Assembly: GCF_004323735.1 (NCBI RefSeq) | Contig: NZ_CP036455.1 | Coordinates: 2,785,101-2,849,100 of the forward strand | Direction of reading: 5' to 3' | DNA length: 64,000 bases | Origin: Streptomonospora litoralis | GTDB taxonomy: Bacteria > Actinomycetota > Actinomycetes > Streptosporangiales > Streptosporangiaceae | Shown: positions 17,298 through 19,756 of the stretch, one piece after another | How positions within the stretch are numbered: the first letter of the stretch is position 1 | Layout of the letters: the number at the start of each line of letters is the position of its first letter | Program-made: the position numbers and the translations under genes | The notes under the pieces: model-generated | Told to the model about the DNA's origin: nothing | Seen by the model: only the letters and a program-made list of their open reading frames with translations | Databases searched by the model: none

Positions 17298-17609
17298 GGC
17301 ACCACCTTAGGCCCGCGCGGCGGCGGCCGCAGCGCGAACGCCGCGACGGCCACGACCGGCAGCGGCCACGTCGCCGGGTAAACCGGCGGGCTCCAAGGTG
17401 GAGGAGGCGGCGGTCGGGGGGCCGAGACGCGGGGGAGCGGCGCGGCGGACGGTTTTGCGTCCGGGAGCCGCGCGAGGGCCGCGGGGTGCGTGCGGGTCGG
17501 CAGCGGATACGGCGGTTGCGAGAGGGCGCGCACCGCCTGCGGTGCGGGGCCGCGGCCTCGTGGGACCGCGACCGCGGCGGAGCCGGTTCAGTCGATTCTA
17601 GCGAGGAGC
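17298..17609. other. non-coding gap between arginase-like gene and TnpB element
   Basis: About 310 bases of GC-rich sequence with no supported gene. It includes the arginase-like promoter side and whatever flanked the TnpB element. The true left end of the element cannot be fixed from this one copy. Confidence 0.45.
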
Positions 17610-17629
17610 CCCGGCTCTGCAGAGCCGGG
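17610..17629. repeat. 20-base perfect palindrome at left end of TnpB element
   Basis: CCCGGCTCTGCAGAGCCGGG reads identically on both strands and can fold into an 8-pair stem with a 4-base loop. Subterminal hairpins of this kind are what Y1 transposases recognise at IS200/IS605 left ends. It sits about 100 bases before tnpB. Confidence 0.7.
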
Positions 17630-17730
17630 AGGAATCGCTTCTCATCACGGCCCCGCCCCGAATACGAGCACGCCTGCGGATATCGGCGTTCGCCCCCCGC
17701 CGGGGCGGCGGTGATCGTAGGATCGCCGCT

Positions 17731-18888
17731 GTGCAGCTCGTCGTGCAGGCCAAACTGGTGCCCGATGCCGCACAGGCGTCCGCGCTGTCAGCGACCCTGC
17801 GCACTCTCAACGAGGCCGCGAACCGGGTCTCGGCGGTGGCCTTCGAGCTCGGTGTGCCGCGCGAGTACGAGCTGCGCAAGCACACCTACGCCGACCTGCG
17901 CTCGCAAGGTCTGGGCGCCCAGGCGGCCCAGCACACCATCAAGAAGGTCCGCGACGCCTACACGACGCTGGCGGCCGATATCCGGGCCGGCCACCTCGGC
18001 ACACCCGGTTCGAAGCGCTGCCGAAAGGCCGAGTCCGCGCCGGTCGCCTTCCGGCCCGAGGCCGCCCACCCCTTCGACGACCGGTGTTCGAGCCGGCGCT
18101 ACGACCAGCGGACCGTCTCCGTCTGGACCACCGCGGGCCGGTTGAAGAACGTGGGCTTCGCCTGCGCACCGGAGGCGCTCAAGATGTTGGTAGAGCACCG
18201 GCAGGGCGAATCGGATCTGGTCGAACGCGGCGGCGTGTTCTACCTGATGGCCACCTGCGAAGTGGCCGAGGCCGAGCAGTATGCGCCGGACGGGTTCATC
18301 GGTGTGGATCTGGGCATCGCCAGCATCGCGACCACCTCCACCGGTTACCGGGCGGCCGGGCGGGGCTTGAACCGCCACCGCAGGCGCCAGGCCGCCCTGC
18401 GGGCCGAACTCCAGGCCAAGAAGACGACATCGGCGAAACGCCGGCTGAAGAAGCGGCGGCGCAGGGAAGCGCGCCACGCCGCGAACACCAACCACACCAT
18501 CGCCAAGCAGATCGTGACCGAGGCTGAACGCACCTCATCCGGTATCGCCCTGGAAGACCTCACGGGCATCCGGCAGAGGGTACGGCTCCGCACGCCCCAA
18601 CGGGTCGCGCTGCACTCCTGGGCCTTCGCCCGGCTCGCCGCCTTCATCGCCTACAAGGCCAAGCGGGCCGGGGTGCCGCTGGTCTCGGTGGATCCGGCCT
18701 ACACCAGCCGGGAATGCGCCGAATGCCATCACATCGACACGAGGAACCGCCTGGATCGGGCCCGGTTCGTGTGCCGGTCGTGCGGGGTCGTTGCCCACGC
18801 CGACCGCAACGCTTCCCGCAACCTCGCCCGCCGGGGCGAGGCTGCGTGGAACGCGGGGCGTGCGTCACGCGTCCCTGCCGCCCCGTAG
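17731..18888 (+). CDS. tnpB: TnpB RNA-guided endonuclease-like protein
   Basis: A 385-residue TnpB/OrfB protein, the family ancestral to Cas12 effectors. The RuvC triad looks intact: D193 in IGVDLGIASIA, E275 in IALEDLTGI, and D358 in AHADRNASRNL. The TnpB zinc ribbon has C329/C332 (CAEC) and C348/C351 (CRSC). The Arg/Lys-rich stretch at 214-250 fits nucleic-acid binding. The length is normal, with no frameshift. The GTG at 17731 is taken as the start (MQLVVQAKLVPDAAQ), where the family N-terminus begins. It would cleave DNA guided by an RNA made from the element's right end, promoting element retention. Confidence 0.93.
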   Translation: MQLVVQAKLVPDAAQASALSATLRTLNEAANRVSAVAFELGVPREYELRKHTYADLRSQGLGAQAAQHTIKKVRDAYTTLAADIRAGHLGTPGSKRCRKAESAPVAFRPEAAHPFDDRCSSRRYDQRTVSVWTTAGRLKNVGFACAPEALKMLVEHRQGESDLVERGGVFYLMATCEVAEAEQYAPDGFIGVDLGIASIATTSTGYRAAGRGLNRHRRRQAALRAELQAKKTTSAKRRLKKRRRREARHAANTNHTIAKQIVTEAERTSSGIALEDLTGIRQRVRLRTPQRVALHSWAFARLAAFIAYKAKRAGVPLVSVDPAYTSRECAECHHIDTRNRLDRARFVCRSCGVVAHADRNASRNLARRGEAAWNAGRASRVPAAP

Positions 18889-18980
18889 CGGGGGTGTCTG
18901 GACGGAGGAGCCCACCCGCCGGCCGGTCGGGCGGCTACCTCCAAGCCCGGCCCTTCAGGGCCCTTCAGGGCCCGGGTCAA
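18860..18980 (+). ncRNA. candidate omega-RNA (reRNA) 3' scaffold at the element right end
   Basis: The region from the end of tnpB to 18980 is strongly structured. A nested stem pairs GGAGG (18904-18908) with CCTCC (18938-18942), with CCGCC/GGCGG inside. A terminal stem pairs CCCGG (18946-18950) with CCGGG (18972-18976) around two tandem CCCTTCAGGG units. It ends GGGTCAA, similar to known reRNA scaffolds that finish just before the guide. The guide would then be the flanking bases from 18981. The 5' end of the RNA probably lies inside tnpB and is not defined here. Confidence 0.5.
18951..18970 (+). repeat. tandem 10-mer in the right end
   Basis: Two perfect head-to-tail copies of CCCTTCAGGG, each itself a small inverted repeat, forming part of the terminal hairpin of the element. 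Confidence 0.85.
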
Positions 18981-19756
18981 GTTGACTCGGCCCGCCGCCG
19001 GTCACCCGCGGGCTTGAGGGCCGTGACGCGCAGCCGGCGGTAGTCGGCCCACCAGCTGCCGCTGTGGTGCAGCACCGGGCGCAGGCGGCCGGTGAGCCGC
19101 TCCACGAACCCGTCGGGGTCGGGGGCGTCGGCCAGCAGCGGCGAGCCGAACATTCGCAGCCAGGCGGCCAGGCCTTCCTCGCCATCGAGGCGGGTGGGGC
19201 GGTCGAACAGCCAGGCGCCGGTGACCTCCAGGCCGGCGTCGGCCAGCACCGCCGAGTATTCGTCGACGCCGGGGAAGTACCACTCCTGGGCGGCCTCGGG
19301 CAGTCCGAGCTCGGCGCGCAGCGCGCGGGCGCCGTCGAGGATGGCGGAGATGTTGCCGGAGCCGCCGAACTCGGCCACCAGTCGCCCGCCGGGACGCAGC
19401 GTTCGGGCCAGAGCGCGGGCGGCCGCCGTCGCATCGGGGACCCAGTGCAGGACGGCGTTGCTCAGCACGGCGTCGTAGCCGGAGTCGGGCTCCAGGGTGA
19501 GCAGGTCGGCGACGCGCAGGTCGAGGTGGGGGAAGCGTTCGCGGGCGCGGTCGATCATCTCCGCGCTGGAGTCGACGCCGACGACCTCGGCCCCGGCTTC
19601 GGCCAGAGCCGCGGCCAGGTCGCCGGTACCGCATCCGGCGTCGAGGATGCGCTCGCCCGCTTCGGGGCGGAGTTCGTCGATCAGGTCGCCGCCGTATCGG
19701 GCGACGAAAGAGTGCCGGTCGTCGTAGAGGCGGGGGTTCCACTGCTGTACTGGCAT
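18977..19756 (-). CDS. SAM-dependent methyltransferase, trans-aconitate 2-methyltransferase-like
   Basis: A 259-residue class I methyltransferase. It begins MPVQQWNPRLYDDRHSFVARYGG, with ILDAGCGTGDLAAAL (SAM motif I, about residues 36-50), VVGVDSSAEMIDRAR (acidic loop) and YDAVLSNAVLHWV (motif IV), plus a helical cap. The pattern is close to the Tam family, which methylates trans-aconitate, or to a small-acid methylase. The body is complete, but its stop codon lies inside the last bases of the TnpB element's right end, so the final few residues may be encoded by transposon sequence. The ATG at 19756 is used. Confidence 0.8.
   Translation of the reverse strand: MPVQQWNPRLYDDRHSFVARYGGDLIDELRPEAGERILDAGCGTGDLAAALAEAGAEVVGVDSSAEMIDRARERFPHLDLRVADLLTLEPDSGYDAVLSNAVLHWVPDATAAARALARTLRPGGRLVAEFGGSGNISAILDGARALRAELGLPEAAQEWYFPGVDEYSAVLADAGLEVTGAWLFDRPTRLDGEEGLAAWLRMFGSPLLADAPDPDGFVERLTGRLRPVLHHSGSWWADYRRLRVTALKPAGDRRRAEST

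What the first reader, a model, noticed from the sequence alone, without database searches (positions are those of the whole stretch)
17601..18980. TnpB-only element with intact nuclease residues and a guide-RNA-like right end
TnpB keeps D193, E275, D358 and both zinc-ribbon Cys pairs with no frameshift, and the DNA after tnpB folds into nested stems ending GGGTCAA. No tnpA accompanies it. In such systems the 3' right end yields an omega-RNA whose guide is the flanking host DNA. The guide here would start at 18981 (GTTGACTCGGCCCGCC). An intact stand-alone TnpB in an actinomycete is a good candidate for an active RNA-guided nuclease.
Basis: partly seen in the sequence, partly recalled or inferred. 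Interest (0 to 1): 0.75.

Follow-up and report, generated by a model that had tools for sequence, protein, structure and literature searches.

The report
TnpB element inserted at stop codons
This is a small selfish DNA element carrying an intact-looking RNA-guided DNA-cutting enzyme (TnpB), and in this actinomycete its copies sit unusually often exactly on the stop codons of host genes, where the element's own end supplies a replacement stop so the gene survives.

Summary
A 385-codon tnpB (17731-18888) with D193, E275, D358 and four Cys lies in a tnpB-only IS200/IS605-type element. Other copies in the genome place the element at 17592-18986, preceded by TTCAG and ending TTGAC. The predicted guide starts at 18987, not 18981: GTTGAC is element sequence. 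The right end has a conserved RNA-like fold (37 consensus pairs, 12 with compensatory changes). TnpB is under purifying selection (dN/dS 0.34-0.40 against five open relatives). One intact-looking tnpA lies elsewhere, in a related element.

New here: of 15 copies with both ends, 10 (12 of 19 right ends) sit exactly on a TGA stop codon of the gene to the right; TTCAG is the reverse complement of C-TGA-A. The right end completes the split codon and adds Ser-Thr or Ser-Ala and a stop. Congeners keep the native stop there, and a lone right end in one congener also lies on a stop codon. Only 4% of TTCAG sites, and 15-25% of those outside coding sequence, are such stops. In related elements of other genera the bias is not significant (9 of 38). 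Cleavage, guide use and the cause of the bias are untested.

The parts
17587..17591 (+). TTCAG: target pentanucleotide on the host side, predicted TAM; reverse complement of C-TGA-A
   Evidence: TTCAG at 17 of 17 left ends of the family in this genome. Joined flanks of six other copies align across the junction to congeners' empty sites, with TCA retained at the join. TAM role is by analogy with ISDra2.
17592..18986 (+). tnpB-only IS200/IS605-type element, 1395 bp
   Evidence: Boundaries from other copies; lengths
17592..17645 (+). left end with subterminal hairpin (CCCCGGCTCTGCAGAGCCGGG)
   Evidence: Conserved among copies and in related elements of other genera
17731..18888 (+). tnpB, 385 aa, GTG start, TAG stop
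   Evidence: families; solved relatives; fold matches
18837..18986 (+). 3' end of tnpB plus right end; predicted omega-RNA (reRNA) scaffold
   Evidence: 24-sequence alignment A2; consensus structure with 12 of 37 pairs showing compensatory changes
18982..18986 (+). TTGAC, terminal motif of the right end; differs from TTCAG at two positions
   Evidence: 19 right ends: 14 TTGAC, 4 CTGAC, 1 TCGAC
18987..19002 (+). predicted 16-nt guide TCGGCCCGCCGCCGGT, antisense to the 3' end of the methyltransferase gene
   Evidence: Follows from the right-end position; 16-nt guide length recalled from passages on ISDra2
18977..19756 (-). host class I SAM methyltransferase gene whose stop codon was the insertion site; now ends Glu-Ser-Thr-stop, with the stop at 18977-18979 inside the element
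   Evidence: searches (empty-site reading ...RRRAD-stop; present ...RRRAEST-stop), Pfam Methyltransf_11

Best explanation
A non-autonomous IS200/IS605-type (tnpB-only) element. TnpA acting in trans would move it as single-stranded DNA to the 3' side of TTCAG. Its right end is transcribed with the tnpB 3' end into a guide RNA carrying about 16-20 nt of the flanking host DNA. TnpB with this RNA would cut the re-joined empty site (TTCAG plus right flank) but not the filled site (TTGAC plus right flank), so that repair restores the element. In this genome the copies are concentrated on TGA stop codons, because the target is the reverse complement of C-TGA-A. The right end restores the split codon and adds Ser-Thr/Ala-stop, so insertion leaves the host protein intact. 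The predicted guide is then the gene's last five or six codons. Shown by sequence: family, boundaries, target motif, conserved RNA structure, stop-codon placement. Inferred: trans-mobilisation, transcription, cutting, and the reason for the enrichment.
For: TnpB family and residues. Fixed ends over 17 left and 19 right ends. Empty sites in congeners for six insertions, 12 alignments across the junction. RNA covariation. dN/dS 0.34-0.40 against five open relatives. Stop placement in 10 of 15 two-ended copies (window copy included) against 16 of 377 TTCAG sites in 464 kb of the same genome; Fisher P 5e-5 against sites outside coding sequence, 0.003 against sites also 200 nt away from any gene start. 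All 12 present-day C-termini gain ST or SA and a stop. Congener proteins end at the same residue for L011 (4 of 4), L012 (5 of 5), L022 (2 of 2) and L018 (3 of 5, the other 2 one residue longer). 10 of 10 submitted host proteins have a Pfam family above cut-off (2 of the 12 not submitted). A lone right end in a congener lies in the same phase on a 465-codon histidine-kinase-like gene.
Against: No expression, RNA or cleavage data. Related elements in other genera show no significant stop bias: 9 of 38 right ends, 3 of 21 with a left-end motif (P 0.11 and 0.64 against 15.2%); 1 of 6 further pattern hits. Gene calls come from my own simple caller; L014's host is a weak 52-aa call, and four right ends were tested with TTCAG assumed. 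Without the window copy and L014 it is 8 of 14, P 0.0004 to 0.009 by null. The single-sequence RNA fold is not exceptional. The model has only moderate confidence (mean pLDDT 73.4, RuvC parts under 50). The only tnpA-bearing element has TTCAA, not TTCAG, at its left end.
Confidence: 0.78

Rival explanations
1. The stop-codon pattern is survivorship only: TnpA inserts at any TTCAG, insertions in genes or promoters are lost by selection, and those on stop codons remain because the right end happens to supply a stop. TnpB plays no part in it.
For: 0 of 15 two-ended copies lie inside a called coding sequence, although 268 of 377 TTCAG sites do. Copies without tnpB (L028, L029, 99-101 bp) also sit on stops. 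Removing promoter-proximal sites from the null shrinks the excess.
Against: Even against non-coding sites more than 200 nt from any gene start the excess remains (24.6% expected, 10 of 15 found, P 0.0007).
Confidence: 0.5
2. The element is a dead remnant: the TnpB is intact by chance and the family is decaying without a cognate transposase.
For: Of the eight 1.38-1.40 kb copies only two (window, L016) align in one frame over residues 1-385; L016 has C332R. The one tnpA-bearing element is only 75% identical in DNA and its own tnpB holds a TGA. Seven two-ended copies are internally deleted.
Against: dN/dS about 0.34 between the two open copies and 29 of 29 aligned relatives keeping the catalytic residues indicate selection until recently. 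TnpA of L065 has an open frame of about 158 codons with HVH and a Tyr motif.
Confidence: 0.35
3. TnpB has been recruited by the host for another role, such as RNA-guided regulation, as nuclease-dead TnpB-like repressors are (recalled).
For: Single stand-alone copies with preserved coding sequence are a usual sign of recruitment.
Against: The nuclease triad is intact; the gene sits in a bounded mobile element with near-identical copies; the guide matches no second TTCAR-flanked site above chance (12 hits against 11 for the reversed control).
Confidence: 0.05

Closest known systems
ISDra2 (Deinococcus radiodurans) TnpB and reRNA
   Same: TnpB cutting guided by right-end RNA whose last about 16 nt come from flanking DNA; TAM equals the TnpA target (TTGAT), as seen in passages of PMC8612924. 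Same D-E-D triad and CCCC zinc finger (PMC10097598, passages).
   Different: Target here is TTCAG; TnpB only distantly alike (profile E 9e-11); no tnpA in the element; copies concentrated on stop codons.
Sulfolobus islandicus IS605-type TnpB
   Same: Guide placed directly after the terminal right-end motif; TAM (TTTAA) differs from the right-end motif (TTCAC), which protects the filled site (PMC11043419, passages). Same logic as TTCAG against TTGAC here.
   Different: Different motifs, host and protein family branch.
IS1341-type elements and PATEs of Haloquadratum walsbyi
   Same: Diverse tnpB-only elements and very short terminal-only derivatives with missing or broken tnpA (PMC3119063, passages).
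   Different: The passages seen do not describe insertion on stop codons; host is an archaeon.
Tn7 at attTn7 beside glmS (recalled, not tested)
   Same: Recognition sequence in the conserved 3' end of a gene, insertion leaving the gene intact.
   Different: Protein-directed (TnsD) and single-site; here a pentanucleotide target and a predicted RNA guide, many genes.

Membership tests
RNA-guided endonuclease TnpB | Family profile match above curated cut-off | tested here: met
   NF040570 175 bits, cut-off 100; PF07282 73.7, cut-off 26.3; PF01385 26.5, below its cut-off 30.5
RNA-guided endonuclease TnpB | RuvC D-E-D triad and CCCC zinc ribbon | tested here: met
   D193, E275, D358, C329, C332, C348, C351
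RNA-guided endonuclease TnpB | Structured RNA from the tnpB 3' end and right end | tested here: met
   Covariation in 12 of 37 pairs; no RNA data, and no Rfam hit for the right end
RNA-guided endonuclease TnpB | RNA-guided cutting of TAM-flanked DNA | not testable with these tools
   Needs an assay
IS200/IS605 superfamily, tnpB-only (IS1341-like) | Subterminal hairpins, no target duplication, insertion 3' of a fixed tetra- or pentanucleotide | tested here: met
   TTCAG at 17 of 17 left ends; empty sites without duplication
IS200/IS605 superfamily, tnpB-only (IS1341-like) | No tnpA in the element; related full elements with tnpA | tested here: met
   1395 bp with tnpB only; related element with tnpA
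IS200/IS605 superfamily, tnpB-only (IS1341-like) | Mobilised by Y1 TnpA | not testable with these tools
   Multiple copies imply past mobility; the transposase responsible is not identified

The most novel reading that the evidence does not exclude
An RNA-guided homing element specialised for stop codons: a TAM that is the reverse complement of C-TGA-A, a right end encoding Ser-Thr/Ala-stop in the matching phase, and guides made from conserved gene ends, so TnpB re-cuts and refills the same harmless site in many housekeeping genes.
Probability: 0.25. Interest if true: 0.8.

Novelty: new variant of a known kind. Interest (0 to 1): 0.52.

Why it matters
IS200/IS605 elements are usually described by a short target motif alone. 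Here the motif coincides with the commonest stop codon of a GC-rich genome and the element's end acts as a replacement stop, which would explain how many copies persist at genes such as a peptidyl-tRNA hydrolase without breaking them. It makes a testable proposal for where TnpB guides point and why, and offers a defined new TAM and guide junction for a compact 385-aa nuclease.

Tried and rejected
Testing the bias in related elements: not significant. Looking for a second TAM-flanked target of the window guide: chance level. Empty site of the window copy itself: the two neighbouring genes are adjacent without the element in congeners G001-G005, but a stretch of about 200 bp (17387-17586) and a diverged gene end prevent base-level alignment, so its ancestral stop is inferred from the reading frame; congener proteins end several residues earlier. 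An earlier claim that no congener has the family was dropped after one search showed a right-end remnant in G004 (L073). Replication-strand orientation: GC skew of the 20 stretches was uninformative. Promoter scan: none found. Rfam: nothing relevant. Literature for stop-codon insertion: searches listed no paper whose title or abstract start reports it for IS605/TnpB; these are word searches of open-licence papers and most listed papers were not read.

Full report
What is there. The window is G000:C1:2785101-2849100 of a 5.81-Mb genome in two contigs. tnpB runs 17731-18888, 385 aa, matches NCBIfam guided_TnpB at 175 bits and PF07282 at 73.7 bits. PF01385 scores 26.5, under its cut-off 30.5. The best solved relatives by sequence are Cas12f-type nucleases; with a 29-sequence profile the ISDra2 TnpB chains are also found, E 9e-11. 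An AlphaFold model of moderate confidence (mean pLDDT 73.4, with 182-210 and 266-302 under 50) matches Cas12f and TnpB structures. D193, E275, D358, C329, C348 and C351 are invariant and C332 nearly so in the alignment.

Ends. A DNA search of the own genome gave 26 match rows, which I merge into 22 distinct places: 20 of the window's family, one related element with tnpA (L021) and one more distant fragment (L033). Fifteen have both ends, four a right end only (counting L021, whose left end lies beyond its tnpA), two a left end only. All 17 left ends of the family are preceded by TTCAG; the 19 right ends finish TTGAC (14), CTGAC (4) or TCGAC (1). The element is therefore 17592-18986 and the predicted guide begins at 18987. 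Joined flanks align across the junction to empty sites of congeners for six insertions (12 alignments), so TTCAG lies on the host side and there is no target duplication.

RNA. The last 150 nt of 24 elements align with 54 invariant columns (counted from its list). The consensus structure has 37 pairs, 12 with compensatory changes. Folded alone the window right end is not exceptional (z -1.16), and Rfam has no hit there.

Mobility and age. Only two of eight full-length copies align in one frame across residues 1-385: the window copy and L016, which has C332R. Their dN/dS is 0.34; against four open relatives from other genera it is 0.34-0.40, and 0.49 against one with a stop. One tnpA with an open frame of about 158 codons and an HVH motif sits in the related element, whose left flank is TTCAA. 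Short derivatives of 99-101 bp exist (L028, L029). In five congeners the DNA search found no copy, only short matches; one of these, in G004, proved to be a right-end remnant. In 394 genomes of the class a strict right-end pattern was found in this genome (10 hits) and in two others (one each).

Stop codons. On joined empty sites my gene caller puts the TCA of TTCAG on the stop codon of the right-hand, convergent gene in 10 of 15 two-ended copies (L009 = window, L011, L012, L013, L014, L018, L020, L022, L028, L029), and in two of four right-end-only places (L023, L030; TTCAG assumed). Not on stops: L010, L015, L016, L024, L025, and L019, L021. None of the 15 lies inside a called gene. The insertion splits the last sense codon two plus one; the right end supplies the third base and then Ser-Thr-stop or Ser-Ala-stop; all 12 present-day C-termini read so. 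In the window sequence this phase stops after two codons, the others after nine or not within 87 nt. Congener proteins end where the host protein ended before insertion for L011 (4 of 4 loci), L012 (5 of 5), L022 (2 of 2), L018 (3 of 5, two one residue longer); L020 and the window's methyltransferase have diverged ends. Ten host proteins were submitted to Pfam and all ten hit a family above cut-off, among them peptidyl-tRNA hydrolase, RsgA, a transketolase-like protein and PucR. The G004 remnant lies in the same phase at the end of a 465-codon frame with a histidine-kinase-like C-terminus.

Controls. In 464 kb of the same genome, with element copies masked, TTCAG occurs 377 times: 268 in coding sequence, 93 elsewhere, 16 on such stops. 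The expected share is 4.2% of all sites or 14.7% of sites outside genes; with sites near gene starts removed it rises to 24.6%. Ten of 15 gives P 5e-11, 7e-6 and 7e-4 respectively. Dropping the window copy and the weak L014 leaves 8 of 14, P 2e-8 to 0.009. Against the reading: in related elements of other genera 9 of 38 right ends (3 of 21 with a left-end motif) lie on stops, not more than expected outside genes, and 1 of 6 further pattern hits, one of which (L215) has the same right flank as L192. The left-end motif search there looked only for NTCAR, so its TTCAR yield (18 of 21) is not an independent test.

Interpretation. By analogy with ISDra2 (PMC8612924, passages) and Sulfolobus TnpB (PMC11043419, passages), TTCAG would be both target and TAM, and TTGAC would spare the filled site. 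The window guide would be antisense to the last codons of the methyltransferase gene; no second TTCAR-flanked match exceeds chance. Why stops are favoured is open: harmlessness explains the absence from genes, but not all of the excess over quiet intergenic sites. Homing through conserved gene-end guides is my bolder proposal (0.25). A TnpB gene-drive effect has been shown on plasmids (PMC11870625, passages).

Noticed in passing
L073 (G004:C1), right end finishing at locus position 1562: A congener holds a lone right-end remnant exactly at the stop codon of a histidine-kinase-like gene, in the same Ser-Thr-stop phase.
   Followed up: partly
L028 and L029 (G000:C1 about 3310500 and 1371650): Derivatives of 101 and 99 bp with both ends; L029 keeps the right-end scaffold without tnpB, so it might supply a guide in trans. 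Both sit on stop codons.
   Followed up: partly
left ends of L163, L181, L021 against L158, L166, L168: TTCAA-flanked elements tend to carry TCTAGCCAGGA and TTCAG-flanked ones TCTAGCGAGGA, as if TnpA's guide bases co-vary with the target; exceptions exist.
   Followed up: no
window 18942-18980 and L013, L016: The terminal right-end hairpin carries tandem 11-12-nt duplications differing in number between copies.
   Followed up: no
window 17387-17586: About 200 bp of GC-rich sequence between the arginase-like gene and the element has no counterpart between the same two genes in congeners G001-G005.
   Followed up: no
G000:C1:3068630 and 2582713 (L062, L063); 3879245 (L001): Other, longer TnpB families in the same genome (open frames of 499 and 510 codons), and one TnpB beside a truncated TnpA.
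   Followed up: no
window 17718-17723: TAGGAT 7 nt before the GTG start suggests a leaderless tnpB transcript; the sigma-70 scan found no promoter.
   Followed up: no
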